A DNA stretch of 60,815 nucleotides from an uncultured Erysipelotrichaceae bacterium (lineage in GTDB: Bacteria > Bacillota_I > Bacilli_A > RFN20 > CAG-826): positions 115,365 to 176,179 of the forward strand of contig CADCDA010000004.1 in the NCBI GenBank assembly GCA_902800025.1. Direction: 5' to 3'. The translations under genes and the position numbers were made by a program. Each line of letters opens with the position of its first letter. Position 1 is the stretch's first letter. Positions 20,895-48,609 of this stretch are shown here, piece after piece. Below the pieces are notes generated by a model, which saw nothing but the letters and a program-made list of their open reading frames with translations, made no database searches and had not been told where the DNA came from.

Positions 20895-20975
20895 CATATG
20901 AGTGCAACTGGCTGCCCCGTAGGGGCCCTATAGCTTTGCGTCACCGGATTACTCCGGGTTTGCCGATATGTCTTT
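20895..20975 (-). ncRNA. c-di-GMP-I riboswitch (GEMM-I)
   Basis: On the minus strand the aptamer shows the class-I consensus in order: GGCAAACC with a GGA-tetraloop-like hairpin, GGTGACGCAAAGCTA, GGGCCCCT...GGGGCAGCC, and AGTTGCA closing P1. GACGCAAAGC and CAGCC are the diagnostic blocks. It lies upstream of a GGDEF protein, a classical context. A second hairpin CTACAC-T5-GTGTAG (20891-20875) sits between aptamer and terminator; its 5' arm can also pair with GTGTAG upstream of the aptamer (20988-20983), a plausible switching helix. A promoter TTGAAA-17-TAGTAT lies at 21009-20981. Confidence 0.92.
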
Positions 20976-29040: not shown

Positions 29041-29136
29041 ATAAATACTATTTAGTATTAAGCAGTTAAACATATTCCCTGTTGCGGCACACGAGTCTCG
29101 GTTACTTAGATAATGTTATCTAAGTAAAAATGCTTA
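29041..29136 (-). ncRNA. Candidate structured RNA element, copy A
   Basis: Read on the minus strand: P1 5' TAAGCA (29136-29131), a perfect 12-bp hairpin (29127-29102), block AACCGAGAC (29103-29095), variable segment, block CAGGGAATA (29081-29073), P1 3' TGCTTA (29064-29059), then a 7-bp hairpin AATACTA/TAGTATT and TTTAT. The same order and sequence blocks occur at 44.1 and 48.5 kb. Orientation is inferred from those copies; the opposite strand also ends in a terminator at 29142-29166. I do not recognise a known RNA family. Confidence 0.45.
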
Positions 29137-30778: not shown

Positions 30779-30863
30779 CCTCCATCAAGGAGAAGGTGGA
30801 GGTATTAACTAAACAATTGAGCCTGCAATTCTTTATGAAACAATAGGGAAATGCAGGTTTTTT
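30779..30863 (+). terminator. Hairpin and intrinsic terminator after MATE gene
   Basis: First ACCTCCA/TGGAGGT (30778-30803) without T-run, then CCTGCA (30822-30827)/TGCAGG (30852-30857) followed by T6. The second ends the MATE transcript and abuts the convergent recombinase stop. Confidence 0.7.
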
Positions 30864-32598
30864 ATACAATTACGACTTTATAGTGAAGTTTGAATGTTTT
30901 TCTAAGCCCTTTACATTTGGTGATGCCTTTATAAATTGGTTCTCTTTCAGCTACTTCTTTTCTCTTTTGCCTAAGCGTTTCTAAAGGCATAGTGTGGGAA
31001 GCATTGATTGTGAAGACAACTTCATTTCTTCCTAGAACAATAATTCGATAAAGGAATACATCCAGTATGTCTTTGTTAATCATTTCAGGTGTAACTTTGT
31101 TTTCTGCTATAAGTGATTGAATCTTTTTGTACCTGGAAGCGATGTCTATCTCGTTCCCTTCTTTTTCTTGTAAAGCCTCAATCTCTTTCCCTAATAGCTT
31201 GTATTCATTGCATGCTTTAAGATATTGCTCGTCAAACAAAGCCTTCATATTTATATCTTCAGCATTAGCTCTTTCTTCCATTAAGAGGCTGATGGTGTTT
31301 TCTAGTTCTTCCTTCCTTTTTTCTTTGTCCTGGATAATAGGAGTGGTGCTTCTTTCTTTTTCAAAGACTGTAGTCATAATCTTTTGTATCTTCTCAAAGA
31401 CTTTACTTTTAGAAAGGAACAATTCATTAATAACATCCGCACAAGCTTTTAAGAGAATGTCTTCTCCAATTGGTTTCGCTGAGCATCTTTCCTTATCCTT
31501 TGGTTCGATATAGCCGTTACATTGATAGACAATTCTTGGAACTTTATAGCCCGCTGTCCACTGTCTTCTTTTGTAAGTCTGCCCACAGTCATAGCAGATG
31601 AGCATGCCACTTAATGGATATAAGGTATTGTATTTATTCAAGTCTCTATTCGCGCCAATCATTCTTAAGGATTGAGTCTTAATTCTTTCTTGAACTCGGT
31701 CCCACATGACGGGATCAATAATTGGTTCATGGGAATTAGTTACATAGTAAGAAGGAACCTGACCTTTGTTCTTTACCGCTTTATGTGTCAAATAATCAAC
31801 GGTAAATGTTTTTTGAAGTAACAAGTCACCTTTGTATTTTTCGTTCCTTAAAATGCTTTGCAATGTACTTAAATGCCAATATGTGTTTCCAGTGATGGTT
31901 TTATAGCCACGTCTTATCAATTCTCTTCTGATTTCAAAGATGCCGCAGCCCTGGTCATACATGGTATAAATGAGTTTAACTATCTCAGCTTCTTCTGGAA
32001 CAATGACCAACGTATCATTCTCACCTTTTGTGTATCCCAAGAAGCGAGAAGTGGTGATGATTGCCTTGCCTTCTTTCATCATCTTTTGGAATGTCCATTT
32101 AACGTTTTCTGATATGTGTCGGCTTTCTTCTTGCGCCATAGAACTGATGATGGAAAGCATGAATTCTGTTTTCTCATCGAAAGTGGACATCCTTTCGTTA
32201 TCAAAATAAACTTCAACACCTATAGCTTTTAGCTCTCTGATTGTTTGGATAGTAAGAACTGTGTTTCTGGCGAACCTGGAGATAGATTTACAAAGGATCA
32301 AGTCGATCTTTCCTGCTTTTGCATCTTCAATCATTTGATTAAAGCCATCTCTATTTTTAGCGGAAGTACCTGAGATACCTTCATCAGAATAGATTTTCAC
32401 TAACTGGTACTGTGGATTCTCCAGAATTCTTTTTGTCCACTCTTCAACTTGGTTATCAAAAGAAGTGGATTGTTCTTCAGAGTCAGTGCTAACTCTACAG
32501 TACGCCGCAGTTCTTTTGATGATACTTAAATCATCCTTCATGTCTGTTAAAGAACGAAGCGGTCTAGTTGGTGCGATTGTTGTAACTACTTTATTCAT
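30862..32598 (-). CDS. Large serine recombinase
   Basis: A 578-residue site-specific recombinase. The N-terminal resolvase domain has the catalytic Ser in AAYCRVSTDS (Ser37) and ISRFARN with the catalytic arginines. A recombinase domain follows (LGYTKGENDTLVIVPEEAEIV... GNTYWHLSTLQSILRNEKYKGD), then a zinc ribbon (CYDCG...C...C), a coiled coil and a basic tail. This is the TnpX/CcrA/phiC31 group, which integrates or excises mobile elements, and it is apparently intact. GGAGG precedes the ATG, and a 53-residue gene lies just upstream. No conjugation or phage structural genes are in the window, so the mobilised element is probably a genomic island or a decayed one. Confidence 0.92.
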   Translation of the reverse strand: MNKVVTTIAPTRPLRSLTDMKDDLSIIKRTAAYCRVSTDSEEQSTSFDNQVEEWTKRILENPQYQLVKIYSDEGISGTSAKNRDGFNQMIEDAKAGKIDLILCKSISRFARNTVLTIQTIRELKAIGVEVYFDNERMSTFDEKTEFMLSIISSMAQEESRHISENVKWTFQKMMKEGKAIITTSRFLGYTKGENDTLVIVPEEAEIVKLIYTMYDQGCGIFEIRRELIRRGYKTITGNTYWHLSTLQSILRNEKYKGDLLLQKTFTVDYLTHKAVKNKGQVPSYYVTNSHEPIIDPVMWDRVQERIKTQSLRMIGANRDLNKYNTLYPLSGMLICYDCGQTYKRRQWTAGYKVPRIVYQCNGYIEPKDKERCSAKPIGEDILLKACADVINELFLSKSKVFEKIQKIMTTVFEKERSTTPIIQDKEKRKEELENTISLLMEERANAEDINMKALFDEQYLKACNEYKLLGKEIEALQEKEGNEIDIASRYKKIQSLIAENKVTPEMINKDILDVFLYRIIVLGRNEVVFTINASHTMPLETLRQKRKEVAEREPIYKGITKCKGLRKTFKLHYKVVIV

Positions 32599-33619: not shown

Positions 33620-34768
33620 ATGGAACCAAACAAAAAAACACTACGCGTTTTTGAAGCTTTCTCTGGAATTGGTGCTCAGTTCTCTGCTTTAGAGAAGGCA
33701 AAATTGAACTTTGAAATAGTTGGAATAAGTGATTGGTTTATTGATGCACTTGTTGGCTATGATGCTCTTCATGGAAAAAAGGCAGACCTTCCAAAAATAC
33801 CATCAAGAGATGAACAAATTAGATATTTGAATAATTATTGTTTTAGTAAAGACTCTGTATCTCCCATTAAAGATATTTCAAGACTTTCTGATGCGGAATT
33901 AAAACGTTTATATATAGCAAATAAGCGATCCAAAAATGTTGGCTCTATATTAGATGTTCATGGACAAGACTTGATCGATTTAAACATTGATCTTTTGATT
34001 TATTCGTTCCCTTGCCAGGATTTGTCGACTGGCGGTAAAACTCTTGGAATGAAAAAAGGCTCAGGGACAAGGTCTGGGTTATTGTGGGAAATAGAAAGAA
34101 TTCTTAAAGAAATGAAGAAGCTTGGAAAATTACCAAAATATTTGCTTCTTGAAAATGTCAAAACAATTCTTGCTCCAAGCAACAGAGAAGATTTAAATCA
34201 GTGGTTACATTTTTTAGAAAAAGAAATGGGATATAAAAAACATCACCCTATGACACTTGATGCAAGTGAATTTGGAGTGCCTCAAGATCGTAAAAGAACC
34301 ATTATCATCTCATGTCTTGATAAAGAAATTGATATTGAATCGGTTTTGCCGAGAAACAAGAAATACGATGCGAGAGACTTTATAAAAAACGATTACTCTA
34401 ATCCTGTTTTCAAAAGCGAAGCGGATCAAGCTTCATTAAACCCAACCCCATCTAGAGAATTGATGTGGAAAATTAACAAAAGAACTTTGTCGAAAGATAC
34501 TATTTTTCATACCATCACCTGCAATATGGACAGAAACAATAATGCTGGTATGCTTGAATACAAACTTTATAAAGGCAGAAAATATAGGTTGTTAACAATG
34601 AGGGAAGCATTTTTGTTAATGGGATTCAAAGAATCTGATTATGAAGATATAAAATCTCTGGGCTTCAGTTATAGAAAGATTAACAAATTGATTGGAAATT
34701 CTATTGTTGTTAATGTTCTTTCAGCTATTTTTGTGACACTATTTGGTGAAGAGTATGGAAAAATTTAA
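33620..34768 (+). CDS. DNA (cytosine-5-)-methyltransferase
   Basis: A 382-residue m5C methyltransferase with motif I FEAFSGIGAQFSAL, catalytic motif IV FPCQDLS (Cys132), motif VI LLLENVKTI, motif VIII QDRKRTIII and motif X NKLIGNSIVVNVL. The target-recognition region between VIII and IX is short. It is the first gene of a seven-gene operon and supplies self-protection for the downstream nucleases. ATG 33620 has no Shine-Dalgarno. The next gene overlaps it by 14 nt. Target sequence unknown. Confidence 0.93.
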   Translation: MEPNKKTLRVFEAFSGIGAQFSALEKAKLNFEIVGISDWFIDALVGYDALHGKKADLPKIPSRDEQIRYLNNYCFSKDSVSPIKDISRLSDAELKRLYIANKRSKNVGSILDVHGQDLIDLNIDLLIYSFPCQDLSTGGKTLGMKKGSGTRSGLLWEIERILKEMKKLGKLPKYLLLENVKTILAPSNREDLNQWLHFLEKEMGYKKHHPMTLDASEFGVPQDRKRTIIISCLDKEIDIESVLPRNKKYDARDFIKNDYSNPVFKSEADQASLNPTPSRELMWKINKRTLSKDTIFHTITCNMDRNNNAGMLEYKLYKGRKYRLLTMREAFLLMGFKESDYEDIKSLGFSYRKINKLIGNSIVVNVLSAIFVTLFGEEYGKI

Positions 34769-35780
34769 GTTTGCCATCGATACAAAATCTTTTTTTGTTG
34801 GTATAACAAATGATACTGGTGGTGGTCATACCGCAACAGTTTCAACCAACCTTAAACAAGGAGTTACTACAAAAGGTGAACTTGAATATTTTCTTGCCTT
34901 AAAAAATGAAATAACAATAGAAGGTAATGATGAGTTAATCAACGCCTGTTCTTCTAGATCAAAATCATTAGTTAAAATCATTAAATGCTTGTTTTTTAGA
35001 GAAATATACATAAACGGCGAAAAGCTTAATTGTGATAAAGAATTTGCTGTTTATTTGAAAGAGGAAATAAATCCAGAAGCTATACAATATGGAAGAATAA
35101 AACTTCATTACCCTCTTACTTTTTCCTATTCCGATTATGAACATGAAATTGATAATCGTGAAGTGGTTCTAGCTATCAAAAAACAAATCGGTGGTTATGC
35201 ATATATCGTCAATTCGTTTGAACTCTATTTTGATAGAGCCAGAATTGATATTGACGCAACTATTATCGGCGAAGATGAAATACCATATTCAAAAGTTTTT
35301 GTTGACCAAAAAGGAGTTGGAAACAAATTTAACAAGCTATTCTCAGAACAATCCGATTCATACGATTATGAAATAATGGCTGTAAAGAGATACGTTAATA
35401 AAAGTATCACGCCAAAAGAGTATGTTGAAATGCTTCCTTCCCTTGAAGAGAAAGCTACAAAAATAGCAGAAGAATACTTACTTTCTAAAGGACATCAAAA
35501 CATTAATAACGTATTATCAAAATACCCTTATAGCCCTGTAGATATGGAATACTATCTAAATGGTCTGAAGTATTATATAATAATAAAAACTACCGCTACG
35601 AACATTGACTACTTCTTCTTATCAAAGTATGAATGGCAGTTGATTTGTGGTGAACCAAAAAGATGCAAGGTCTTGTTGGTTAAGAAGGTATGTTCAGACG
35701 ATCCTACTCTAGTAGAATTTGATTTAGAAAAGATTAATTCGATGAGTAGAGAATTCACAGGGATGAGGGTGTTTAAATAA
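34755..35780 (+). CDS. NO VEIN (DUF3883)-like protein of the defence operon
   Basis: A 341-residue protein starting at ATG 34755 (GGTGA five bases upstream). The N-terminal two thirds are unrecognised. The last ~110 residues (ATKIAEEYLLSKGHQNINNV... VDMEYYLNGLKYYIIIKTTATNIDYFFLSKYEW) match the layout of the NO VEIN C-terminal domain, a PD-(D/E)XK relative. The position where active members have E-x-K reads I-I-K here, so a catalytic acid may be missing and the domain may only bind DNA. It sits between methyltransferase and GHKL ATPase, with no gap to the latter. Role inferred from context. Confidence 0.6.
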   Translation: MEKFKFAIDTKSFFVGITNDTGGGHTATVSTNLKQGVTTKGELEYFLALKNEITIEGNDELINACSSRSKSLVKIIKCLFFREIYINGEKLNCDKEFAVYLKEEINPEAIQYGRIKLHYPLTFSYSDYEHEIDNREVVLAIKKQIGGYAYIVNSFELYFDRARIDIDATIIGEDEIPYSKVFVDQKGVGNKFNKLFSEQSDSYDYEIMAVKRYVNKSITPKEYVEMLPSLEEKATKIAEEYLLSKGHQNINNVLSKYPYSPVDMEYYLNGLKYYIIIKTTATNIDYFFLSKYEWQLICGEPKRCKVLLVKKVCSDDPTLVEFDLEKINSMSREFTGMRVFK

Positions 35781-37247
35781 ATGTCTTTAATACAAAAAAC
35801 TCCAAGCGCTAAGAAGATGTTGGTTGGATTAAGGTCCATGGGATATTCTTTTAGCACCGCTTTAGCAGATATCGTTGATAATTCAATAGCTGCACATGCT
35901 AGCAAGATTTGGATTGATTCAGAACCGCAAGATAAAAATACTTATTTATACATTCTCGATAACGGAACCGGAATGAATAGAGATAAATTGATTGATGCTC
36001 TTTCGTTTGGCTCTGATAGTGATCACGATGGTTCTGATTTCTTAGATTTAGGCAGATTTGGACTTGGTTTGAATACAGCCTCATTGTCTCAGTGCAAAAG
36101 ATTTTATGTTATTACTAAACAGCAAAATGAGATCAATGGTGGATATTGGGATGTTGACGAACTTGAAAATAGCGATGACTGGATGCTCAATATTTTGTCT
36201 TTGGACGAAATGGAGTGGCTTCCTGGTTTTAAAAAACTACTTGAGCTTGAAACCGGTACACTAGTTATTTGGAAAAAGTTTGACAAAATACTATCTACAA
36301 CATCAAAATTTGAAACCTCATTTAGAAGTAGGGTTGCTGAAGCAAAAAAACACTGTGAGCTTGTTTTCCATAGATTCTACGATGAAATTGAGATTCGTTT
36401 TAATGATGCAAGAATTCACAGACGCGATCCATTTTTAACATCATTTGATAATGCTCAACACAGAACTGAAGAATACCTTAAATACGGAAATCAAAAGATT
36501 AATTATCAGGCCCATATTTTGCCTCACACAAGTTCTCTCACCAACGAACAAAAAGATTTAATTGGTGGAGTCGAAACCATGAGAAGTGAACAAGGTTTCT
36601 ATTTATATAGAAATAGACGTCTGATTATTTGGGGAAATTGGCTTCATATGAACTCTAGAAGTGAGTTCTTTAAGCTTGCCAGAATAAGAGTCGATATCCC
36701 AACAACTCTTGATTTTGTTTGGAATCTCGATGTTAAAAAGACCTCTGCTGTCATTCCTGACTCATTGAGGGACCAATTGTGGGCAGTGGTTGAAGATGCT
36801 TCAAAAACAAGCACTAGAACATATCGTTTTAAGGGCGAAAAAGAATACTCAGGAAAAGTAAAAGTTTGGAATAGAACCAAAACCCGCGAAGGCGAAATAA
36901 AATATGAAATTAACGACTCGCTACCATTAATTGTTTATCTTAAGGACAAGCTTGGTGAAGAAGACTCTGTGCTTTTAGATTCGTTATTGAAACAAATAGT
37001 TGATTACTTACCTAAAAACCAATTAAACGTCGATATAAATGACACTGATGTCAAGTTAGCAAATGGCGAGGAACAAGATGATTTGGACCAATTAGTTGAC
37101 CAGCTTGCACTCGTTCTTTCTGGATTGCCACCAATTGCTAGAGCAACAATTTGCGATAAATATCTTCAATACGAGAACTACGTTCTTCTCAAGGAAAGAA
37201 GAGAAGAAATTTTAAAGAAGGCAGATGAATATGCAACTAACAGATAA
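35781..37247 (+). CDS. GHKL (MORC/Hsp90-like) ATPase of the defence operon
   Basis: A 488-residue protein with a Bergerat fold: N-box ALADIVDNSIAA (~27-37), DNGTGM (60-65) and GRFGLGLNTAS (91-101), then an S5-like transducer region and a charged helical C-terminus. Such MORC/MutL-like ATPases act as ATP-gated DNA clamps and are known from predicted multi-gene restriction systems. It starts directly after the stop of the NO VEIN-like gene and overlaps the Z1 gene. An N-box Asn (N34) is present, so ATP hydrolysis is expected. Confidence 0.88.
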   Translation: MSLIQKTPSAKKMLVGLRSMGYSFSTALADIVDNSIAAHASKIWIDSEPQDKNTYLYILDNGTGMNRDKLIDALSFGSDSDHDGSDFLDLGRFGLGLNTASLSQCKRFYVITKQQNEINGGYWDVDELENSDDWMLNILSLDEMEWLPGFKKLLELETGTLVIWKKFDKILSTTSKFETSFRSRVAEAKKHCELVFHRFYDEIEIRFNDARIHRRDPFLTSFDNAQHRTEEYLKYGNQKINYQAHILPHTSSLTNEQKDLIGGVETMRSEQGFYLYRNRRLIIWGNWLHMNSRSEFFKLARIRVDIPTTLDFVWNLDVKKTSAVIPDSLRDQLWAVVEDASKTSTRTYRFKGEKEYSGKVKVWNRTKTREGEIKYEINDSLPLIVYLKDKLGEEDSVLLDSLLKQIVDYLPKNQLNVDINDTDVKLANGEEQDDLDQLVDQLALVLSGLPPIARATICDKYLQYENYVLLKERREEILKKADEYATNR

Positions 37248-40059
37248 AGAAGATGGCTTATATGGAATGCTGGCTATTCTCTCAATGAAAGGGAAGCCTC
37301 TAACTTTTGCTGAGCTTGTTAAGCACGCTCATGGTTTTGCTGAGCTTCTTGGAGTTGATGAAGACGGAATTAAAAAGGTCATTAATTATTATCAGGAAGT
37401 TAATGGCGTTTCCAAAATTGATTCAAGAATTTTGCGAGGTGAAGATGCTTTTTGGCTTTCAGACAATATCGAAGACGATAAGATTCCACATCTCGACAGA
37501 TATATTAGATATTTGATTGATAAAAAGAAATTCTCTATTGATGTTGTTGGCAGTTTGAAGAGAGATTTGATTAGAACTGTAAAGAATTTTGCTGATCCAT
37601 ATTCAATGTTTGTATTGTGCAAAAAAGGACTTGTTGTTGGCGATGTCCAATCTGGAAAAACAGCAAACTATATCGGCCTCATTAACTTAGCTGTTGATAT
37701 TGGGTACAAGAACGTTGTTTTGTTAACAGGAACAACTGAGAACCTACGAAATCAGACACAAAAACGTATTGACGATGGCTTCATAGGTGCTAAGAGCAAA
37801 ACAATTGGAAGACAAATTGAATATACGGGTGTTGGCTTGGATTTAAAGCAATATTTTGCTATTACGTTCACAGATGAAGACAAAGATTTTCTCAAAAATG
37901 TTTTGGACAGCATTAAAGCTAACGAGCTTGATTATAATAAACCTAGAATATTTGTTATCAAAAAGAATAAAAGAGTTCTTAACGAGTTAAAGGAATATTT
38001 GGCTTCAAACGAAGGAACAAGATCTGATTCTAGTTTGTTAATTATAGATGATGAATGTGACTATGCTTCTTTGAACACTAGAACAAAAGAAAATAGGACT
38101 GCTATTAATGGTCTTATCGGAGAGTTTTTTAAGTTGTTCAAAACAACAACATATGTTGGATATACAGCCACACCATATGCAAACGTTTTTGTTGATCCTG
38201 ATGATACACCTGAATCAATTGATTTATTTCCAAAGGATTTTATCGTCCTATTAGAACCACCTTCTGATTATATTGGTGGACCACAAATATTCAAAAAATG
38301 GGACAACGAAGAAAAAGAAAAATATAAAGTCGGTTCTTTATCGTATGGACCACATGTTTATTTATTGTCCGAAAACGAAAAAGATTTTTTACCGACAGTA
38401 CATCAGATAGATGATAGGCTTTTTGAGCTTCCTCTGTCTTTGAAAACTGCGATTTGCTCCTTTTTAATTGCTAATTGCCTTAGGACATTAAAAGGTGATT
38501 TGACAGAACATAGAAGTATGTTGATTAACATTTCTCGTTTTAATGATGTTCAAGAGCACATAAAAATGCTTGTGTTGGACTACGTTAAAGAAATGAGAGA
38601 CGCAATTGAACAAACTTATATGAGAACGAATTTAGATAAGTTCCTTAATAGTGATATCACAAGATTGTTATATAAAATTTGGACTACAGATGAGGTGTAT
38701 TATTCAACTTTTGGAGAAAATAAAGAAAAGAATATACCTCCTTTAAGAGAAAGGTTTACATGGGAACAAATTCAGCCATTACTTTATGAAGAGATTCAAA
38801 AAATGGAAGTGGCTGTCGCTAACTATAAACATAAAAACGATAGATATAATTATGACGACAAAAAAGATGAAGGTGCCAGAGTTATAGTCATAGGTGGCTT
38901 CTCGTTATCTAGAGGTCTTACATTGGAAGGATTGATGATTAGTTATTACAACAGAAATGCATCAGCTTATGATGTTTTGCTTCAAATGGGAAGATGGTTT
39001 GGATATAGACCAAATTATGAAGAACTCTGTATGGTCTTTATGACACAAATCAATATTGATTGCTTCAAAGCTGCGATTCTTGCTACTGAAGAATTAAAAG
39101 ATTCATTTAGACAAATGGCCGACGAGGATAAAACACCAATGGAATTTGGCTTATCTGTAAGAAAAGCTCCAGAAACATTGGATACCAACTTATTGGTTAC
39201 AGCTAGAAATAAATGTAAAAATTCTGCTACTTATAGAAGAATCATCAGTCTTGGTGGCAAAGTTGTAGATACGTCAAAGATATATAAATCCAAAGAGAAC
39301 AACGAAACTAATAAGATGGCTGTTGAAAAGCTTTTGGAAGAAGCTAGATATGAAGGCAAAACATTTGAAATAGCTAATTCGGATCCGGGATATAAAATGC
39401 TCGTTGGAATAGATCGTGAATTGATTTGCAAATTCATAACTAGAGTCAAATATCCATTGGCTAATAAGAGCTTTGATAAAGACGGAATCATTCAATTGAT
39501 AAAAAAGCAAGAAAGTCTATCAAATTGGGATGTTGTGTTTGCTAAAGGCAATAGACAAGGTGCAGATGCATTTGATTATCATTTCTCCGGCATTGATGGC
39601 AGGGCGGTGTTCCGTTCTTTCATCTCACGCAAAAGAGAAACATTTATTAGAATTGCTGATACAAATAACAGATTAGCAGATCCGAACTTATTTAGAATTG
39701 GTCTGACACTGGAACAATACAACGATTTAAAAGAACATAGTGATGGAAAAACTTCTTTCCAAGTTACTGAGTATTTAAAATATGATAGAAAACCACTTCT
39801 CATTATTTATCCAATTTGGCTAAAAGCATATACAGACGAGAATAGAAACAATCAATCTAAAGGAGAACTTGATTCTTTTGATATTGAAAGCGAATTTAAA
39901 GGAATACCGATGATAGGCATTGCGCTTGGTTTCCCTGGTAAAGCTGGTGATAATGTCGAAGCCGAGTATTTATATAATAAAATTAAAATCGATCAAATAT
40001 TGGCTGAAGAAGGCGAAGAAGATATTGATGAAGACGATCTATATGTGGAGGAAGACTAA
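37231..40059 (+). CDS. Z1-domain superfamily II helicase-like protein
   Basis: A ~942-residue protein with Walker A GDVQSGKTANY (~137), Walker B LLIIDDECDYASL, the motif III-like VGYTATPYANVF and the Z1 signature FSLSRGLTLEGL...NRNASAYDVLLQMGRWFGYR (motif VI). Z1 proteins are SF2 ATPases found beside GHKL ATPases in predicted restriction systems and are assumed to translocate DNA. ATG 37231 has GAAGG at a suitable distance; ATG 37225 is too close to it. The C-terminus is very acidic (EEGEEDIDEDDLYVEED). The stop shares a base with the next start. Confidence 0.92.
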   Translation: MQLTDKEDGLYGMLAILSMKGKPLTFAELVKHAHGFAELLGVDEDGIKKVINYYQEVNGVSKIDSRILRGEDAFWLSDNIEDDKIPHLDRYIRYLIDKKKFSIDVVGSLKRDLIRTVKNFADPYSMFVLCKKGLVVGDVQSGKTANYIGLINLAVDIGYKNVVLLTGTTENLRNQTQKRIDDGFIGAKSKTIGRQIEYTGVGLDLKQYFAITFTDEDKDFLKNVLDSIKANELDYNKPRIFVIKKNKRVLNELKEYLASNEGTRSDSSLLIIDDECDYASLNTRTKENRTAINGLIGEFFKLFKTTTYVGYTATPYANVFVDPDDTPESIDLFPKDFIVLLEPPSDYIGGPQIFKKWDNEEKEKYKVGSLSYGPHVYLLSENEKDFLPTVHQIDDRLFELPLSLKTAICSFLIANCLRTLKGDLTEHRSMLINISRFNDVQEHIKMLVLDYVKEMRDAIEQTYMRTNLDKFLNSDITRLLYKIWTTDEVYYSTFGENKEKNIPPLRERFTWEQIQPLLYEEIQKMEVAVANYKHKNDRYNYDDKKDEGARVIVIGGFSLSRGLTLEGLMISYYNRNASAYDVLLQMGRWFGYRPNYEELCMVFMTQINIDCFKAAILATEELKDSFRQMADEDKTPMEFGLSVRKAPETLDTNLLVTARNKCKNSATYRRIISLGGKVVDTSKIYKSKENNETNKMAVEKLLEEARYEGKTFEIANSDPGYKMLVGIDRELICKFITRVKYPLANKSFDKDGIIQLIKKQESLSNWDVVFAKGNRQGADAFDYHFSGIDGRAVFRSFISRKRETFIRIADTNNRLADPNLFRIGLTLEQYNDLKEHSDGKTSFQVTEYLKYDRKPLLIIYPIWLKAYTDENRNNQSKGELDSFDIESEFKGIPMIGIALGFPGKAGDNVEAEYLYNKIKIDQILAEEGEEDIDEDDLYVEED

Positions 40060-41006
40060 TGGTAAATTTCAAACAGTTCTTTGAAGAAAGAAAAAGAAAC
40101 GATGCTTTATATAAAATTGACAATCAATCGTGTTTAGATTTTTATTGTGGCTTTGATGAAAATAATAACTATTGTCTTGCGCTTAAAGCATCCAAACCAT
40201 TCCCTTTTATTGAATCAACCAAACTTCTTACAATTGAACAAAAAATCGATATCGTTCCTGATACCTATTGGCTTTATATATCTTTAAAAGATGCTGAAGC
40301 AAAGAACGTTTTCTTCTCGTTTTGCAATGATATTTTTGAATCAATAGACGAGAAAAAAGATTTTGATGATCTTTATGTTTTGCTAAAAAACAGGATTAGC
40401 TGCTGGAAAAAGATGTTTAGTAAGGCAACAAAACCTATTTCTAAAGAAGCAATAAAAGGTCTATATGGAGAACTTCTTTTTATTGATAAATATCTGAGCA
40501 AGCAAATAGGTTTAGTAGACGCAATTAAATCATGGAGTGGACCAGCTGGAACAAGTAAAGATTTTGCTTTTAAGAACACATGGTATGAAATAAAGACCAT
40601 TAATGTTTCTAGCCCGACTATTAAAATATCATCTCTTAATCAACTTTCCGACTCAAATAATGGGTATTTGGTAGTGATTAAAGTTGAGGAAACATCAGAA
40701 ATGTATACATCGGACTGGTCTGATATTATAACCATTTTTGATAATATTTCAGGCAAGTTAAGAGAAGTGAACGATAGTGAAATTGTTGATGTTTTCTTTG
40801 AAAAACTTGCAAAACTTGGCTTTGCTCCAGATGAAGAATACAGAAATTATAAATTTAGACCAAAGGAACCAATTTTTTATCTTGTTGATGAACAATTTCC
40901 ACGTCTAAAAGAGAGCGATATTCAGCATCTAGAAATCGCAAAAATATCTTATGAATTGATTTTGAAAATGCTTGAAAAATACAGGAGCGAACCATGGAAA
41001 CTTTAG
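40059..41006 (+). CDS. PD-(D/E)XK motif protein (DUF4420)
   Basis: A 315-residue protein with the family hallmark GLYGELLFIDKYL and the nuclease core SGPAGTSKDFAF...WYEIKT, giving D-(x)n-E-I-K, around residue 165-180. This is a restriction-nuclease fold and the best candidate for the DNA-cutting subunit of the operon. GGAGG precedes the ATG inside the Z1 gene; the AIPR gene starts 13 nt before its stop. Active-site residues are intact by eye. Confidence 0.85.
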   Translation: MVNFKQFFEERKRNDALYKIDNQSCLDFYCGFDENNNYCLALKASKPFPFIESTKLLTIEQKIDIVPDTYWLYISLKDAEAKNVFFSFCNDIFESIDEKKDFDDLYVLLKNRISCWKKMFSKATKPISKEAIKGLYGELLFIDKYLSKQIGLVDAIKSWSGPAGTSKDFAFKNTWYEIKTINVSSPTIKISSLNQLSDSNNGYLVVIKVEETSEMYTSDWSDIITIFDNISGKLREVNDSEIVDVFFEKLAKLGFAPDEEYRNYKFRPKEPIFYLVDEQFPRLKESDIQHLEIAKISYELILKMLEKYRSEPWKL

Positions 41007-43099
41007 AACAATTTAGGAAAGATAAGCTGGTTGAAATTGAAGCTAGTGCTATTGAAGAGTGTGTTTATCCAAGGATCAAGTTTTTTGAGTATGTGAAAGA
41101 TATTTTGAGTGATTCTGGCCAAGTAAGTGATCTTATTGAATGCTCTTATGTCAGAGAGGCTCATGACAGTAAATATAAAAGCATGAGGGTTGATGGATAT
41201 AACATCGAACCATCTGATGGAACTTTAACGTTATATATTAACGACTACAATGGCGATGAAATGGAAACCATTGTTTGGGAAAAGATAAAAAAATTAACAG
41301 ATCAACTTTTAAACTTTTTTAGCAATACCTGTAAGCACTTCTTTACTGACAACGACATTGAGAAGTCCTCAATTATTTATGGTGCGGCCATAGATATTTT
41401 GCAAAAGATTAAATCCATTGGAAGGATTCACCTTTTTATTGGTTCAACTAATCTTTTGAGTGAAAGGGTGAAGATGAGGGATTTAGAACCAGTCATGTAT
41501 GGCGACAGAAAGATTGATGTCGATTTGACTGTGATAGATATCAGCTATTTGTATAAATTTGAAATGTCTCTCAGACCAAAGGAAGTAATTGAATTAGATG
41601 TAACTGAATATGTTAAAGAAGGAATTCCTTGTTTGAAAGCTGATATTGGTGTTAATAACTATTCAGCTTATTTGGCAATTGTGCCAGGAACTTTCCTTTG
41701 TGATATTTATAGGAAATATGGTGGACAGTTGCTTGAATCTAACGTTCGTTCTTTTTTAAATGTAAAAGGCACTGTTAATAAAGGAATCAGAAATACAATT
41801 CTCTATGAAAAAGAAAAATTCTTTACATACAACAATGGTATTGCCTGTACTGCGGATGAAATAAAACTAACCGAAGATGGCTCGCACATAATAGGTATTA
41901 AGAATTTCCAAATCATTAATGGTGGTCAAACGACAGCATCTTTAGCTTCTGCTGTAATAAAAGACAATGCATATGAAAACTTAAAAAGCATTTTCGTTGC
42001 TATGAAATTAACTGTTTTGTCAGAGCCAGACGAAGAATTGGTTGCAGATATTTCAAAGTACGCAAATAGTCAAAATAAAGTTAGTGCATCAGATTTGAGA
42101 TCTAATAAGAAGTTCTATATCAGAATGGAACAATTCTCTAGAAAGATTTATGCTCCAAGAACACCAGCTGTTTCATATCAAACCAGATGGTTCTTTGAAA
42201 GAACTAGAGGGCAATATGATAGAGATCAAATGGATATGACTCAAAGTGCTAGAGATGCTTTTAAGAGAGTCAATCCAAAGTCACAAGTTATCAAAAAGCC
42301 TGACATGGCTAAATTCTATAATTCTTACATCATGAGACCTTTCGATGTTGCTTGGGGTGCAGAAATTAACGCTTCTAAATTCCAGGAAATAATTGATGGC
42401 TTATGGGAAAAAGACGACACTCAATTTAATGAGCAGTTCTATAAAGACCTTGTTTCTATGGGTATTATCTTCCTTCGCACCAGGTTGTTAACTTCTCAAA
42501 CGGAATGGTATAAAGCGAATAGTGGTATCTTGGCTCAAGTAACCCCATATATTGTTTCTAAAATCGTATATGAGGTTTCTCAACTTGATGATAAAGTGAT
42601 TGATCTTAAAAAGATTTGGAATAATCAGAGCATATCGGACGCTTTTGAAAATGAGATTTTAAAAGTTGGTGAATTTGTGTTTAAGATCATCTCGGATCCT
42701 CATAGACAAATGATCAACATCGCTGAATGGTGTAAGCGTGAAGCATGTTGGGAAACAGTCAAAGATAAACACTATGATTTGTCTGCGGAGTTCATCAACG
42801 GATTGGTTTCAAAGAAAGATTTAAAAGAAGAGGAAGTTGCTGCCAAAAAAGAACAAAAAGCATTGAATTCGGTTAATTTTGCAATTGAAATCTTCAATCT
42901 TGGAGAAAAATATTGGGACAACATTATTCACCAAGCAACCAGAGATGGTTTAGTTGGTCCAAGAGATATGGAGTTTCTGACATTAGCAAAGAACTCATGT
43001 AGAACTATGCGAATTGTTAGCGATTCTCAAGCTAATGTAATAAGAAAAATACTCGAGCGTCTTGAACAAGCTGGCGTAGACATCAAAAAGAGAGACTAA
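40994..43099 (+). CDS. AIPR family protein
   Basis: A 701-residue protein with the AIPR core (~220-480): IGVNNYSAYLAIVPG, RSFLNVKGTVNKGI, FFTYNNGIACTAD and FQIINGGQTTASLASA. AIPR (abortive infection phage resistance) proteins were defined from lactococcal phage resistance and recur in restriction/defence operons; a nuclease-like or RNA/DNA-targeting role is suspected, not proven. Translation is coupled to the PD-(D/E)XK gene by a 13-nt overlap. The C-terminal ~200 residues are helical and unassigned. Confidence 0.87.
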   Translation: METLEQFRKDKLVEIEASAIEECVYPRIKFFEYVKDILSDSGQVSDLIECSYVREAHDSKYKSMRVDGYNIEPSDGTLTLYINDYNGDEMETIVWEKIKKLTDQLLNFFSNTCKHFFTDNDIEKSSIIYGAAIDILQKIKSIGRIHLFIGSTNLLSERVKMRDLEPVMYGDRKIDVDLTVIDISYLYKFEMSLRPKEVIELDVTEYVKEGIPCLKADIGVNNYSAYLAIVPGTFLCDIYRKYGGQLLESNVRSFLNVKGTVNKGIRNTILYEKEKFFTYNNGIACTADEIKLTEDGSHIIGIKNFQIINGGQTTASLASAVIKDNAYENLKSIFVAMKLTVLSEPDEELVADISKYANSQNKVSASDLRSNKKFYIRMEQFSRKIYAPRTPAVSYQTRWFFERTRGQYDRDQMDMTQSARDAFKRVNPKSQVIKKPDMAKFYNSYIMRPFDVAWGAEINASKFQEIIDGLWEKDDTQFNEQFYKDLVSMGIIFLRTRLLTSQTEWYKANSGILAQVTPYIVSKIVYEVSQLDDKVIDLKKIWNNQSISDAFENEILKVGEFVFKIISDPHRQMINIAEWCKREACWETVKDKHYDLSAEFINGLVSKKDLKEEEVAAKKEQKALNSVNFAIEIFNLGEKYWDNIIHQATRDGLVGPRDMEFLTLAKNSCRTMRIVSDSQANVIRKILERLEQAGVDIKKRD

Positions 43100-43113
43100 A
43101 GTGGACAAAAGAT

Positions 43114-43989
43114 ATGGCAAAACAACAATTATCAGGAAGATTTAAAAGCAAGAGAATATCTTGGACCGATGAAGAGCTTAGAATCACTCTTGGCTACTAT
43201 TACTTCATTTATGAACATAATACAAGAGAGCATGACTACGAGCTTTTTACAATTCATCTAAGAAAGATGACTGGGAACAATAGATCTTTTGGAAGTGTCG
43301 GTGTTAGATTTGGTAATTTTAATTCAGTTAATCCTGCGAAAAGCGGGACTGGTTTTAAAGGCGGAGACAAAAAATGTAAGCCAATTTGGGATGCGTGTAT
43401 TAACAAAGACGGGACACCAAAAACTAGCTTCATTAAGGAATTTATGGATTTTATTCAAACCTATGGCGGAAATAATAAAATCTATGAACCATTTGTAAAA
43501 AAGTACAAACAATATTTAAAAACTACCGGAAAAGCAATTGAAGATGATGATTCTGATGATGTGGTAACTACAGATGATGTGGATCAGAGCGAATCGTTTG
43601 GTGCTCCTGAATATAAAATTGAACCAAAACCACAATCAACTAATGTTGTATCAAAGAAGTATACACGTGATGCATATAAAGCTAAGAAAGCTATATTTAA
43701 CGCGGGGTATGAATGTAATATCGATAAAACCCATGTATCTTTTAAAACTAAATCTGGAAAGAACTATATGGAAGCCCATCATTTAATTCCTATTGGTGCT
43801 CAGGACGATTTCAATAATAGTTTGGATGTTGATGCAAATATTGTCTGTTTGTGTCCTAATTGCCATAGAAAATTGCATCATGGAGCAAACATCGATAATG
43901 AACTACTCAAACTATTTAACGATAGGAAAGATGGATTGAAGAAGTCGGGCATAGATATTACCTTTGACGACTTAAAGAAGTACTATTGA
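43114..43989 (+). CDS. HNH endonuclease
   Basis: A 291-residue protein with a C-terminal HNH site: MEAHHLIPIGA, then NIVCLCPNCHRKLHHG (zinc CxxC plus catalytic His). The N-terminal region (SWTDEELRITLGYYYFIYEH... FGSVGVRFGNF) is the DNA-recognition-like segment found in front of HNH domains of restriction enzymes. An acidic linker with DDDSDDVV separates them. It is the last gene of the operon, 14 nt after AIPR, and followed by a terminator. It may be a second nuclease acting on unmethylated or on modified DNA. Confidence 0.87.
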   Translation: MAKQQLSGRFKSKRISWTDEELRITLGYYYFIYEHNTREHDYELFTIHLRKMTGNNRSFGSVGVRFGNFNSVNPAKSGTGFKGGDKKCKPIWDACINKDGTPKTSFIKEFMDFIQTYGGNNKIYEPFVKKYKQYLKTTGKAIEDDDSDDVVTTDDVDQSESFGAPEYKIEPKPQSTNVVSKKYTRDAYKAKKAIFNAGYECNIDKTHVSFKTKSGKNYMEAHHLIPIGAQDDFNNSLDVDANIVCLCPNCHRKLHHGANIDNELLKLFNDRKDGLKKSGIDITFDDLKKYY

Positions 43990-44027: not shown

Positions 44028-44088
44028 GAAAGCAAACACTGTTACAGGGAATATGTTTTTCATAATAAAAATGGTGTAAAAATGACAA

Positions 44089-44206
44089 TTAAGCATAGCT
44101 TAGTAACCAAAACATACTGAAAAAAACTATCGGTGTATACAACGCTCGCACCCCGTATCAGGGAATAGGATATGCTTAAAAGATGCAAATTTTCTTTGCA
44201 TTTATT
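44089..44206 (+). ncRNA. Candidate structured RNA element, copy C
   Basis: P1 is a perfect 9-bp pairing TTAAGCATA (44089-44097) with TATGCTTAA (44171-44179). Inside are AAGC/GCTT, the block GTAACCAAAAC (44103-44113) and the block CAGGGAATA (44159-44167). A terminator hairpin ATGCAAA/TTTGCAT (44183-44201) with TTATT follows. A possible promoter TGTAAAAAT ends just upstream. Blocks and order match copies at 29.1 kb (minus) and 48.5 kb (plus). An extra partial block ACAGGGAATATGTTTTTC lies at 44044-44061. Confidence 0.5.
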
Positions 44207-44350
44207 ATATAAATATAATAATTCGTTAATGCTAAATTGAATAGGTGACGGCAATATGCTGTTTTTCTTATTAAGTATTCGCTTACTATGACACATAATA
44301 CTTTTGAGTTTGTGCGATTAGCGTGTTAAATATTTACATAATAAAAATTG

Positions 44351-44430
44351 TCGAAAAGCATGCACCGTATAATTATTTAACTATCGAAAAACATGCATAA
44401 ACTATAAAAATATATGTCGAAAAACATGCA
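44351..44430 (+). repeat. Three 14-bp direct repeats with exact 33-bp period
   Basis: TCGAAAAgCATGCA at 44351 and TCGAAAAACATGCA at 44384 and 44417, separated by 19-bp AT-rich spacers, ending 54 bp before the ATG of the DUF4143 ATPase gene. The regular period and location suggest iteron-like or operator binding sites. The spacers contain -10-like TATAAT (44368) and TATAAA. They are too few and too short to be a CRISPR array. Confidence 0.85.
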
Positions 44431-44484
44431 AATTTATTGATTATTTAATGCGATTGTGCAACATTATTATTGAGGTGTCTTATT

Positions 44485-45825
44485 ATGGATTTAAAAAGAA
44501 AAATATTTAACGAATTATTAATGTGGAAAAAAAATAAAGAAAAAGAATGCCTTATTTTATACGGCCCAAGACAAGTTGGCAAAACTACAATTGTGGAGAG
44601 ACTCGGCGAGACATATGAGAGTTTTATTAAAATTGATTTTGTTCAATCGCCACACCTTAAAAAAATATTTCAATTAAATAAGGATGATGAAGTTGAACTT
44701 TCTAGCGAGAACATTTTGAAAAGAATTACCGCTAACATGCGTGATGCAAAATTAGTACCTGGCAACACTCTTATTTTCATTGATGAGATACAAAAATGCG
44801 GTGAAGCAAGAACAGCATTAAAATATTTGGCAAATGATTCAAGATATGACGTTATTGCTTCAGGATCACTTTTAGGACTTGCGTATGGACAAGATGATGA
44901 TCCAGAAGTAAATGAACCAGATTCTATTCCTGTGGGTTTTGAAAAGCCATTAACAATGTATTCATTAGACTTTGAAGAGTTTTTGTGGGCTTATGGTTAT
45001 TCAGAAGAAAAAATAAAATATCTTAAAGAATTTTACGAGAATAACGAATTAGTACCTTCTGAAATTAATAATAAATACGAAGAATTGTTTAGAGAATTTA
45101 TGGTGGTTGGCGGAATGCCTGAAGTCGTTTCAACATTCATGGAGACAAAAGATTTTAATAAGGTTCAAGAAGTTCAAGACAAGATTATAAAAGATTATTG
45201 GAATGATATTGCTCTTCATGCAAAAGGAGTTGAAAAAGTTAAGGTTAGAAAGTGCTTTGATTCTGTTCCTAGACAGCTCAGCAAAGAAAATAAAAAATTC
45301 CAGTATTCAAAAGTAGAAAGTGGAAAAACTGGTAGATATTTTTCTAATAGTATTCAATGGCTAAAGGATTCTGGCCTGGTGAATGTTTGTTATAATGTTT
45401 ATGAGCCATATATTCCTCTCGTAGGAAATGAAATAGAAGACATGTTTAAACTTTATTATCACGACACTGGTTTATTGTGTTCGATTTATGGATTTGAAAC
45501 AAAACTGGCTATTTTAAACAACACAATTAAAGGCAACGCAAAAGGTGGTATTTATGAAAACGTTATTGGTGAGTTGTTGGTTAAAAAAGGGCATAAACTA
45601 CATTATATCAAAAACGATAACTCAATAATGGAAATAGAATTTTTAATAGAAAAGAATGGTGAAGTTCTTCCTGTGGAAGTTAAAGCCGGAAATGATACAA
45701 CTATATCGTTGAATTACTTTGTTGAAAAATGGAAACCATCAATAGCCTATAAATTCATTAAAGGCAATATCGGCTTTAATTCTCCAAAAAAGACCATTCC
45801 TCATTACATGATTATGTTTTTATAA
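44485..45825 (+). CDS. AAA+ ATPase with DUF4143 domain
   Basis: A 446-residue protein with Walker A GPRQVGKTT (~27-35), Walker B TLIFIDEIQ (~95-103), sensor-like ASGSLLGLAYG, and a C-terminal DUF4143 domain ending in a restriction-fold-like segment EIEFLIEKNGEVLPVEVKAG (E...E-V-K). These ATPases are abundant, often in multiple copies in host-associated bacteria, and their role is unknown. ATG 44485 has GAGGTG seven bases upstream. It is preceded by three 33-bp-period repeats and followed after 15 nt by the primase-helicase gene. Confidence 0.88.
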   Translation: MDLKRKIFNELLMWKKNKEKECLILYGPRQVGKTTIVERLGETYESFIKIDFVQSPHLKKIFQLNKDDEVELSSENILKRITANMRDAKLVPGNTLIFIDEIQKCGEARTALKYLANDSRYDVIASGSLLGLAYGQDDDPEVNEPDSIPVGFEKPLTMYSLDFEEFLWAYGYSEEKIKYLKEFYENNELVPSEINNKYEELFREFMVVGGMPEVVSTFMETKDFNKVQEVQDKIIKDYWNDIALHAKGVEKVKVRKCFDSVPRQLSKENKKFQYSKVESGKTGRYFSNSIQWLKDSGLVNVCYNVYEPYIPLVGNEIEDMFKLYYHDTGLLCSIYGFETKLAILNNTIKGNAKGGIYENVIGELLVKKGHKLHYIKNDNSIMEIEFLIEKNGEVLPVEVKAGNDTTISLNYFVEKWKPSIAYKFIKGNIGFNSPKKTIPHYMIMFL

Positions 45826-45840
45826 TTATCAATTTTTAAT

Positions 45841-48513
45841 ATGGATAATAAAGATGAATTAATTGCAAAGTTAAAAAGAGAAAACGCTTATCTTAAATCG
45901 CTTCTTGAACAAAACGGCATTTCATACGGAGAGCCGAAGGAAATAAAGCAATATAACTTTTCTGATGAGGAAAAAATAGACCTTTATTTATCTTATTTTG
46001 TTGGAAGAGACGATATTTTTGCTTATGAGTATTACACCAAAGAAAATAAAAGAATGTTTTCTCCTGCTTGCAAATCTAGGCCAAACTTAACTGGATATTG
46101 TCCATTTAAATGCAGCGAATGTTTGAATAAACAATATGTTGGAATAACTGCTAAAGATATCAAAAGACACTTACTTGGAAATGACACATTTGGAATTTAC
46201 CCATTATTAAAAGGGGATTTTTGCCAACTATTGTCGGTTGATTTTGATGATGATGATTTTAAAGATAGTGCAAAAGCTTTTTCTTATGTTTGCAAAAAGC
46301 ACAATTTAGATAATCTTATAGAAATATCTTCATCAGGATGTGGTGCCCATGTTTGGTTGTTCTTTGATAAACCAATTAAAGCCGCTAAAGCAAGAAGGCT
46401 TGGTACTTTTCTGATTTATGAAGCCATGGATTCATCAAAAGGAATAAATTTTGATTCGTTAGATAGAATGTTTCCCTCTCAAGACTACGTTCCAAATAAA
46501 GGATATGGAAATCTAATAGCGCTACCCTTACAAGGAAGAAAAGCTATTGATGGAAAAACCATTTTTGTAGATGAAAATTTTGTTCCTTACGATTTAAAAA
46601 ACCAAATTAACATTTTAGCGAGCATTAAGAAAGTTACCGAGGAAGAAGTAGATGCGCTTTTGAACGAATATAAAGAAGCCGATTTCTTTCCTTTATTAAA
46701 TAAAAATGTCCTCAAAAATATAAAACTGAATCGAACCGATTTCGACAAAAGAATCATTGTTATCAAGCAAAATGAAATATTGGTTCCTAAAGCAGCATTG
46801 AATGACAGAAGTATCAAATTTATATATAGATTAGCGAGTCTCCCTAATCCAAAATATTACGAAGCACAAAAGAACAGAATATCTACATATAACATTCCTA
46901 GAATTCAACAGCTATATCACGAAGACGAATCTTTTGTTTATCTTCCAAGAGGGTGCTACGAAGATTTGGTTAAAGTTTTGAACTTCTTTGGGGTTGAAAT
47001 TATCGTTAAGGACAACCAAACATCTGGCGAAATGATAATGGTGTCATTCAATGGAAAGTTAAAAGATTATCAAAAAGATGGGCTTAATAAACTGATGAAA
47101 TATGATAATGGCCTGTTTGTTGCTCGTCCATCATATGGCAAAACGGTAACCGCGATTGCACTAATTGCTGAGTTAAAATTAAACACCTTGATTATTGTCC
47201 CGAATCTAACTTTGCTAACTCAATGGAAAGAAAGATTAAACACATTTATAAATGTTGGGTATGATTTTAAAAAAGAAAAAGATAAATTCGGTCAATACAG
47301 TGGTAGCAAAAAGACATTAACAAACAAAATAGATGTTGCATGTATTGATTCTCTTTTAGGAGAAGAGGGGACTGAACTATTAAAAAAATATGGTGTTGTA
47401 ATTCTTGATGAGGTTCACCATATTGCTGCTACGTCGTATGAACAGGCTGTAAGAAAGTGTTACAGCAAATACTTATATGGATTCACTGCTACTCCAAAAA
47501 GAAGCGATAAAAACGAGAAGATTATTTATAAAACCATTGGCGATATTAGATATCAATACAAAGATGACGATAGTGATTTGGATAAAGTTTTAAAGCCAGA
47601 ATTCACATCTTTTACGTTTTCATCTCTTGAAAAAACAACGCCGTATTCAGATATGCTTTCAGCTTTATTAATGGACGACGAAAGAAACAACAGAATTGTT
47701 AATGATATTAAGAAAGCATTCAAAGAAAAGAAAAATATAATTGTTTTGACAGACCGAATAGATCATATCAATCTTTTGAAAAATGAATTAAATGACATTG
47801 ATAATGTTTTTGTGATTAATGGCCAACTATCCTCAAGTGAAAAGAAACAATTTTTCTACAATGTTGAAAAGGCAAATAAAGGATTTGTGATTATTTCAAC
47901 TGGCAAATATATTGGTGAAGGATTTGATGAAAAGAAACTGAATACTTTATTTATAGTTTCTCCTTTTAGATGGAATGGAACTCTTGAACAATATGTTGGT
48001 CGATTACATAGAACGGACGAAAACAAAGAAGAAGTCGAAGTTCATGATTACGTTGATATCAACATTAAAATGTTTGAAAAGATGTATCACGAACGTTTGA
48101 GAGGCTACAAAAGGCTTGGTTATGTTATATGTGGTGATGAAGTAGTGTTTGAAAGGAAAATATATTCTACAAACGATTATAGAAACAAATTGTTCGAAGA
48201 TTTAAAAGAATGTAAAAAAGAAATGGATCTCATCATAAACGATTTCAACAATGTTGAACTAAATGAAATCTTAGATTTACACAATGATATTAAAATATTC
48301 ACTAAATCGAACAACACAATTGAACACAAAAATGTATGTGGATTATACAAAACAAACCTCGAAATTAACGCTGTTATTATTGATCAAAAGATATTGTGGT
48401 ATGGAGGAATCAACCCCTTCAAAACAATTGCTTATAATGACTCCATAATGAGGATTAATGATAAATCAATTTGTGAAACGATACTTAAAGAAGCCAGAAA
48501 AGGTAATAAGTAA
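45841..48513 (+). CDS. TOTE-type primase-helicase (AEP + SF2)
   Basis: An 890-residue fusion: an N-terminal short coiled coil (ELIAKLKRENAYLKSLLEQN); a zinc-like segment CPFKCSEC; an archaeo-eukaryotic primase domain with metal motif LLSVDFDDDDF (~130-140) and SSSGCGAHVWLFF; and an SF2 helicase with Walker A PSYGKTVTA (~429-437), DEVHH (~523-527), GFTATPKR and TLEQYVGRLHR. This is the AEP-helicase of TOTE conflict systems, predicted from comparative genomics to act in defence or element conflict. No Shine-Dalgarno is seen at ATG 45841; TATAAT lies 14 nt upstream. A copy of the structured RNA element begins at its stop codon. Confidence 0.85.
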   Translation: MDNKDELIAKLKRENAYLKSLLEQNGISYGEPKEIKQYNFSDEEKIDLYLSYFVGRDDIFAYEYYTKENKRMFSPACKSRPNLTGYCPFKCSECLNKQYVGITAKDIKRHLLGNDTFGIYPLLKGDFCQLLSVDFDDDDFKDSAKAFSYVCKKHNLDNLIEISSSGCGAHVWLFFDKPIKAAKARRLGTFLIYEAMDSSKGINFDSLDRMFPSQDYVPNKGYGNLIALPLQGRKAIDGKTIFVDENFVPYDLKNQINILASIKKVTEEEVDALLNEYKEADFFPLLNKNVLKNIKLNRTDFDKRIIVIKQNEILVPKAALNDRSIKFIYRLASLPNPKYYEAQKNRISTYNIPRIQQLYHEDESFVYLPRGCYEDLVKVLNFFGVEIIVKDNQTSGEMIMVSFNGKLKDYQKDGLNKLMKYDNGLFVARPSYGKTVTAIALIAELKLNTLIIVPNLTLLTQWKERLNTFINVGYDFKKEKDKFGQYSGSKKTLTNKIDVACIDSLLGEEGTELLKKYGVVILDEVHHIAATSYEQAVRKCYSKYLYGFTATPKRSDKNEKIIYKTIGDIRYQYKDDDSDLDKVLKPEFTSFTFSSLEKTTPYSDMLSALLMDDERNNRIVNDIKKAFKEKKNIIVLTDRIDHINLLKNELNDIDNVFVINGQLSSSEKKQFFYNVEKANKGFVIISTGKYIGEGFDEKKLNTLFIVSPFRWNGTLEQYVGRLHRTDENKEEVEVHDYVDINIKMFEKMYHERLRGYKRLGYVICGDEVVFERKIYSTNDYRNKLFEDLKECKKEMDLIINDFNNVELNEILDLHNDIKIFTKSNNTIEHKNVCGLYKTNLEINAVIIDQKILWYGGINPFKTIAYNDSIMRINDKSICETILKEARKGNK

Positions 48514-48609
48514 TTATTTTTTATAATACAAATGTATTATAAACCAAGACAAAAATCAGGTAGTCGCAGGGAACATATTTTAACTGCTTACTATCATAGA
48601 TAGTATTTT
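48507..48609 (+). ncRNA. Candidate structured RNA element, copy B
   Basis: P1 TAAGTA (48507-48512) pairs with TGCTTA (48585-48590) through one G-U that replaces the G-C of copies A and C. A 9-bp hairpin TATAATACA/TGTATTATA (48522-48541) follows, then AACCAAGAC (48542-48550), a variable segment, CAGGGAACA (48567-48575 region), AACTGCTTA, and the terminator hairpin TACTATC-ATA-GATAGTA with TTTT. The P1 5' strand overlaps the stop codon of the primase-helicase gene, so the element could form in the 3' UTR. Confidence 0.5.

What the first reader, a model, noticed from the sequence alone, without database searches (positions are those of the whole stretch)
44089..48609. A three-copy structured-RNA-like element; two copies bracket the DUF4143 + primase-helicase cassette
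Seen directly: copies at 29136-29041 (minus), 44089-44206 (plus) and 48507-48609 (plus) share one order. It runs TAAGYA...TGCTTA closing stem, internal hairpin, AACCRARAC, variable middle, CAGGGAAYA, terminal hairpin with T-run. The closing stem is extended to 9 bp in copy C. In copy B, C-to-T on the 5' side keeps pairing as G-U, and the internal and terminal hairpins differ in sequence but keep pairing (12 bp, 9 bp; 7 bp each). Conserved unpaired blocks between changing helices are the pattern of a functional RNA or a folded single-strand recombination site. The two direct copies enclose exactly one cassette. I do not recognise an Rfam class. Alternatives: MITE-like repeat, retron-like or integron-like site, 3' UTR element.
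Basis: seen in the sequence. Interest (0 to 1): 0.85.

Follow-up and report, generated by a model that had tools for sequence, protein, structure and literature searches.

The report
Ends of transposase-less mobile defence-gene cassettes
The three repeated, hairpin-bearing stretches are not one structured RNA but junctions between the ends of small mobile gene cassettes, which carry candidate anti-phage genes and no enzyme of their own and have moved nearly unchanged between genera of an uncultured bacterial family.

Summary
The shared blocks are real, but they are not three copies of one RNA. Each is a junction where ends of mobile units meet at a CA/TG dinucleotide. Copy C contains the right end (RE1) and copy B the left end (LE1) of a cassette, window 44149-48558, carrying an AAA_14/DUF4143 ATPase (PADLOC PDC-S01) and a TOTE primase-helicase. 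Copy A joins two other units.

I found 14 LE1 and 12 RE1 copies, window included, in family relatives. Near-identical cassettes (96-98%) sit in different genera with unrelated flanks, and homology stops exactly at the ends: 40 of 102 alignment ends lie within 4 nt of a core, 0.4 expected. In two genomes sharing both flanks at 92%, the cassettes differ. Fic (SoFic) genes form similar units.

No unit examined encodes a recombinase. Three cassette-bearing genomes have only XerC and XerD as tyrosine recombinases; no cassette ends were found near serine-recombinase loci or in viral contigs. The mobiliser is unknown.

The closing stem is not conserved, LE1 covariation is not significant, and Rfam has no match. 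Best reading: non-autonomous, integron-like or MIC-like cassettes recombined in trans at a 2-bp core. Mobility is well supported; the mechanism is inferred.

The parts
44149..48558 (+). Mobile gene cassette: left end LE1, DUF4143 ATPase gene, TOTE primase-helicase gene, right end RE1, bounded by CA on both sides
   Evidence: Homology to cassettes in other genera starts at LE1 and stops at RE1
44149..44268 (+). LE1: CA|CCCCGTATCAGGGAATAGG head, hairpin ATGCAAA-TTTGCAT, AT-rich palindrome, conserved TTGAATAGGTGA block
   Evidence: 14 aligned copies, about 84% mean column identity
44485..45825 (+). AAA_14 + DUF4143 ATPase, PADLOC PDC-S01 (candidate single-gene defence); ORF can begin at 44470
   Evidence: Pfam E 1.1e-26 for DUF4143; PADLOC E 8.4e-140
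45841..48513 (+). TOTE-type primase + SF2 helicase gene, carried between the DUF4143 gene and RE1
   Evidence: Pfam AEP-TOTE E 5.6e-75; 87.7% identical in G136, homology ending at RE1
48520..48558 (+). RE1: palindrome TTTATAATACA-AA-TGTATTATAAA, then CCAAGACAAAAAT|CA
   Evidence: 12 aligned copies nearly identical up to ATCA and divergent after it
48557..48609 (+). Left-end-like sequence of the next unit, sharing the CA core: GGTAGTCGCAGGGAACATATTTTAACTGCTTA + hairpin
   Evidence: Resembles the LE3-type ends of short units
44035..44148 (+). Probable short MITE-like unit preceding the cassette; left end CACTGTTACAGGGAATATG, right end GTATACAACGCTCG; left boundary uncertain
   Evidence: PSSM hit 19.8 at 44035; sequence comparison only
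29041..29136 (-). Copy A: head-to-head junction with core CA/TG at 29090-29091; to its left (minus strand) an LE3-type end, to its right a CACGAGTCTCGGTTAC-type end
   Evidence: CACGAG-type heads bound units in L142/L197 and L202/L203

Best explanation
The stretches are the termini of a family of small, non-autonomous mobile gene cassettes. A unit runs from CA-[left end] to [right end]-CA and carries one or two accessory genes: DUF4143 ATPase, DUF4143 + TOTE primase-helicase, or Fic/SoFic. Shown: the units are discrete, have been exchanged between genera, sit in different places, and can be replaced whole at one site. Inferred: a site-specific recombinase supplied in trans excises a unit, probably as a circle with an RE-LE junction, and reinserts it at a CA beside an existing half-site GTATCAGGGAATATG, so that units pile up in short arrays. 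The non-palindromic CA core would fix the orientation. The subterminal hairpins are probably part of recognition. The enzyme is unidentified.
For:: the L142 (G181) and L151 (G007) cassettes are 97.5% identical over 1568 bp, starting at CACCCC and ending at AAAAATCA, with unrelated flanks. Window versus L146 (G154, another genus) is 96.6% over 1691 bp, while other homologous stretches of the same two loci are 72-76% identical. The Fic unit L145/L195 has the same kind of borders. Unit 2 (L142/L197, 98.7%) ends exactly where LE1 begins; 40 of 102 alignment ends lie within 4 nt of a core, about 0.4 expected (pairs not independent). G154 and G159 share flanks at 92% but hold unrelated DUF4143 genes, and LE1 of G159 is closer to LE1 of other genomes (94-95%) than to that of G154 (86%), so the whole cassette differs; sites found with a pattern lacking the dinucleotide are mostly preceded by CA; head-to-head pairs keep CA/TG polarity.
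Against: No mobilising enzyme was found. No clean empty site was found; flanks are not conserved between the held species. A few sites have AA, TA, GA or GG instead of CA/TG. Some mosaic cassettes (L147, L152) show deletions or gene swaps that ordinary homologous recombination could also produce.
Confidence: 0.78

Rival explanations
1. The elements are a transcribed, functional structured RNA (riboswitch-like, bridge-RNA-like or 3' UTR element).
For: Hairpins fold better than shuffles; LE1 is a conserved ~120-nt non-coding end. IS110 bridge RNAs also lie in left ends and recombine at a core dinucleotide (PMC11208160).
Against: No Rfam match; covariation not above shuffles; LE1 and RE1 are at opposite cassette ends; no DEDD recombinase in any unit examined, though IS110 genes were not searched for genome-wide.
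Confidence: 0.12
2. Single-strand (HUH/Y1) transposition of PATE-like non-autonomous elements: hairpins at both ends recognised by an IS200-type TnpA in trans.
For: No terminal inverted repeats, subterminal hairpins at both ends, no long target duplication; Y1 transposase genes in 13 of 18 cassette-bearing genomes.
Against: The Y1 genes inspected lie in ordinary IS200/IS605-type loci whose flanks lack these ends; five of the 18 genomes have no Y1 match and one has only a degraded fragment; end hairpins differ between unit types.
Confidence: 0.15
3. A serine recombinase in trans: 2-bp crossover at CA, as for large serine recombinases or IS607.
For: 2-bp core with polarity-dependent orientation and inverted half-sites around it; serine recombinases in 13 of 18 genomes, one in the window at 30862-32598.
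Against: No cassette ends in 208 kb of fetched recombinase-bearing stretches of these genomes; none detected in G012, G015, G138, G152 and G155, which carry sites (some genomes incomplete).
Confidence: 0.25
4. Passive exchange: cassettes spread by uptake and homologous recombination between repeated ends, with no dedicated recombinase now.
For: Gene swaps and deletion scars inside the ends (L147, L152); no recombinase found.
Against: Identical cassettes with wholly different flanks on both sides, borders exact to a base or two at the CA core.
Confidence: 0.15
5. Xer-dependent dif modules or a chromosomal integron.
For: XerC and XerD present in G000, G155 and G012; the RE1 palindrome resembles a dif site by eye.
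Against: The RE1 palindrome spacer varies widely between copies, which a Xer site would not tolerate; integron integrase model scores 115-140 bits against a cut-off of 265; borders are CA, not G|TTRRRY.
Confidence: 0.05

Closest known systems
Integron gene cassettes (attC)
   Same: Small units usually carrying one promiscuous gene and one recombination region, no enzyme of their own, found in short arrays (integron features from general knowledge)
   Different: No integron integrase in the three genomes tested, no GTTRRRY border, a CA core, and conserved sequence at both ends rather than one attC
Mobile insertion cassettes (MICs, e.g. IS231-MIC) and MITEs
   Same: Passenger gene between transposon-like ends, no transposase, presumed mobilisation in trans; short empty versions also exist here
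   Different: No terminal inverted repeats, no target duplication longer than 2 bp, no parent insertion sequence found
pdif / dif modules of Acinetobacter plasmids
   Same: Discrete single-gene modules exchanged at recombination sites without their own enzyme (PMC6449649)
   Different: Ends are not Xer sites: variable spacer, 2-bp core; chromosomal; both ends asymmetric
IS110 / IS621 with bridge RNA
   Same: Dinucleotide core, long conserved non-coding left end, no terminal inverted repeats
   Different: No DEDD recombinase in the unit; no evidence for an RNA; core CA instead of the CT of IS621 (the latter from general knowledge)
PDC-S01 (DUF4143 ATPase) and SoFic defence families
   Same: The cargo proteins belong to these families by PADLOC models
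   Different: Their carriage in a cassette with defined mobile ends was not found in the papers searched

Membership tests
Integron cassette | Integron integrase in the genome | tested here: not met
   G000, G155 and G012 each hold only two tyrosine recombinases, best matching XerC and XerD; TIGR02249 scores 115-140 versus cut-off 265
Integron cassette | attC with GTTRRRY / RYYYAAC core at the border | tested here: not met
   Borders read CA|CCCCGTATC and AAAAAT|CA
Mobile insertion cassette / MITE | Discrete unit with conserved ends at unrelated sites, no transposase | tested here: met
Mobile insertion cassette / MITE | Parent insertion sequence with the same ends | tested here: inconclusive
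   None near serine-recombinase or Y1 loci inspected; whole genomes not searched for every transposase family
dif module (Xer) | Two 11-bp arms with a fixed 6-8 bp spacer resembling host dif | tested here: not met
   RE1 palindrome centre varies in length between copies; host dif itself not located
IS200/IS605-type or PATE | Ends shared with a resident Y1 element | tested here: not met
   Y1 loci inspected carry other flanking sequences
IS110 | DEDD recombinase and bridge RNA | tested here: inconclusive
   Absent from the units examined; not searched genome-wide; covariation not significant
Structured RNA family | Rfam match or covarying helices | tested here: not met
PDC-S01 | Match to PADLOC models | tested here: met
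   E 8.4e-140 for the window protein

The most novel reading that the evidence does not exclude
A previously undescribed gene-capture system in Bacilli: defence-gene cassettes with asymmetric, hairpin-bearing ends recombined at a CA core by an unknown trans-acting recombinase, functionally an integron without an integron integrase, and one vehicle by which PDC-S01, among the commonest defence families, spreads.
Probability: 0.35. Interest if true: 0.85.

Novelty: new variant of a known kind. Interest (0 to 1): 0.63.

Why it matters
PDC-S01 (the DUF4143 ATPase) is reported as the fourth most common defence system across prokaryotes (PMC12988326) and as the most frequent single defence locus in the rumen (PMC13356809). 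These ends define a physical unit of transfer for some of its members, as small as 1.6 kb, in an uncultured family. They make two questions testable: which recombinase moves the units, and whether other single-gene defence systems, such as SoFic, travel the same way.

Tried and rejected
A motif-pair scan of all genome contigs gave hits in unrelated phyla at about the number expected by chance and was discarded. Target-site duplication was rejected as the origin of the repeated CCCYGTATCAGGGAATATG, because the copies at the two ends of one cassette differ from each other. Empty-site searches with joined flanks in two genera found no second genome with the flanks; the window's right flank has no homologue in the genus. 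Serine-recombinase loci and Y1 loci do not carry the ends. The ends are absent from viral contigs, and LE1 has only weak partial matches in plasmids. DUF4143 genes in general lack RE1, so the ends are not simply part of the gene. The LE1 covariation test was negative.

Full report
What was seen. CAGGGAAYA occurs four times in the window against 0.56 expected, and the hairpins fold better than shuffled sequence. The closing stem does not hold: in copy C it is absent from the minimum-energy fold, and it is absent from the homologues found later. Rfam has no match.

Relatives. A DNA search with copy C in 224 genomes of the same family gave about ten clear homologues in several genera. Reading them showed that copy C holds the right end of a gene unit: a palindrome TTTATAATACA...TGTATTATAAA followed by CCAAGACAAAAATCA, lying at or just after the stop codon of an AAA_14/DUF4143 ATPase gene, or of the TOTE primase-helicase gene in the window and in G136. 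In seven loci the right half of copy B, CACCCCGTATCAGGGAATAGGATATGCTTAAAAGATGCAAA..., lies 1.5-1.9 kb upstream as the left end. Alignments of 14 left ends and 12 right ends give sharp outer borders.

Mobility. All-against-all comparison and border reading show discrete units. The L142 and L151 cassettes, from different genera, are 97.5% identical from the first base of LE1 to the last base of RE1 and unrelated outside. The window cassette is 96.6% identical to that of G154 (LE1 through the DUF4143 gene), although other homologous parts of these two loci are 72-76% identical, and its DUF4143 part is 98% identical to that of G066. A neighbouring unit in L142 is 98.7% identical in L197 and stops exactly where LE1 begins. 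Fic units (L145/L195, L143/L207/L208) behave the same way at their left ends, and L195 also at its right end. Over all pairs, 40 of 102 alignment ends fall within 4 nt of a core against 0.4 expected; the pairs are not independent, but the excess is overwhelming. G154 and G159 share both flanks at 92% yet hold different cassettes in the same slot.

The core. Units begin and end with CA. Sites found with a pattern that did not include the dinucleotide are mostly preceded by CA. The half-site GTATCAGGGAATATG recurs beside other ends and in head-to-head pairs around CA/TG. Short units of about 100 bp with a TG-oriented core also exist. Window copy A is such a head-to-head junction. A 2-bp core whose polarity sets orientation is the simplest reading; it is an inference.

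Cargo. The window ATPase matches PADLOC PDC-S01 (E 8.4e-140), and the Fic protein matches SoFic. TIR-domain and DUF4238 genes lie next to some sites, but whether they belong to units was not established. The neighbouring 33.6-43.1 kb region matches the Mza defence system. DUF4143 genes are numerous in the family, up to 23 per genome, but most lack these ends.

What moves them. No unit examined encodes a recombinase. G000, G155 and G012 have two tyrosine recombinases each, best matching XerC and XerD; integron-integrase scores are far below the cut-off. Serine recombinases occur in 13 of 18 genomes but their surroundings carry no ends. Y1 transposases sit in other elements. The mobiliser therefore remains unknown.

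The RNA question. LE1 is a conserved non-coding end with two hairpins, but only one helix position shows change on both sides, no more than shuffles give, and two rows of that alignment are shifted by one base. A guide-RNA role like that of IS110 (PMC11208160) is not excluded, but nothing here supports it beyond analogy.

Verdict. The finding is real and more interesting than its first reading: the stretches mark the ends of transposase-less mobile cassettes carrying candidate defence genes. Mobility is well supported by comparison; excision, circle, core exchange and enzyme are inferred.

Noticed in passing
window 33620-43989: Operon of C5 methyltransferase, MzaB-, MzaC- and MzaE-like proteins, DUF4420 nuclease and HNH protein: an Mza-type defence system
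   Followed up: partly
window 30862-32598 (-): Large serine recombinase beside the Mza operon; its attachment sites were not determined
   Followed up: partly
window 20900-20974 (-): c-di-GMP-I riboswitch
   Followed up: no
L147 6100-6310 of the reverse complement: Start of a TOTE gene fused to its own end: internal deletion inside a cassette
   Followed up: partly
L152 9977-11845 (-): One DUF4143 gene followed by the 3' tail of another, a scar of gene replacement between conserved ends
   Followed up: partly
L142 163-261 (-), L197 8436-8536 (-): MITE-like unit of about 98 bp with TG core and central palindrome
   Followed up: partly
L152 16148-17986 (-): Tandem row of small ~100-aa proteins starting MKEELLKGLSEEQIAKIKACKSQEE, resembling bacteriocin-type leader peptides
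   Followed up: no
L202 6802-8199, L204 8706-10102: Another DUF4143-type unit preceded by repeated TTCAAAACACCGAA blocks
   Followed up: no
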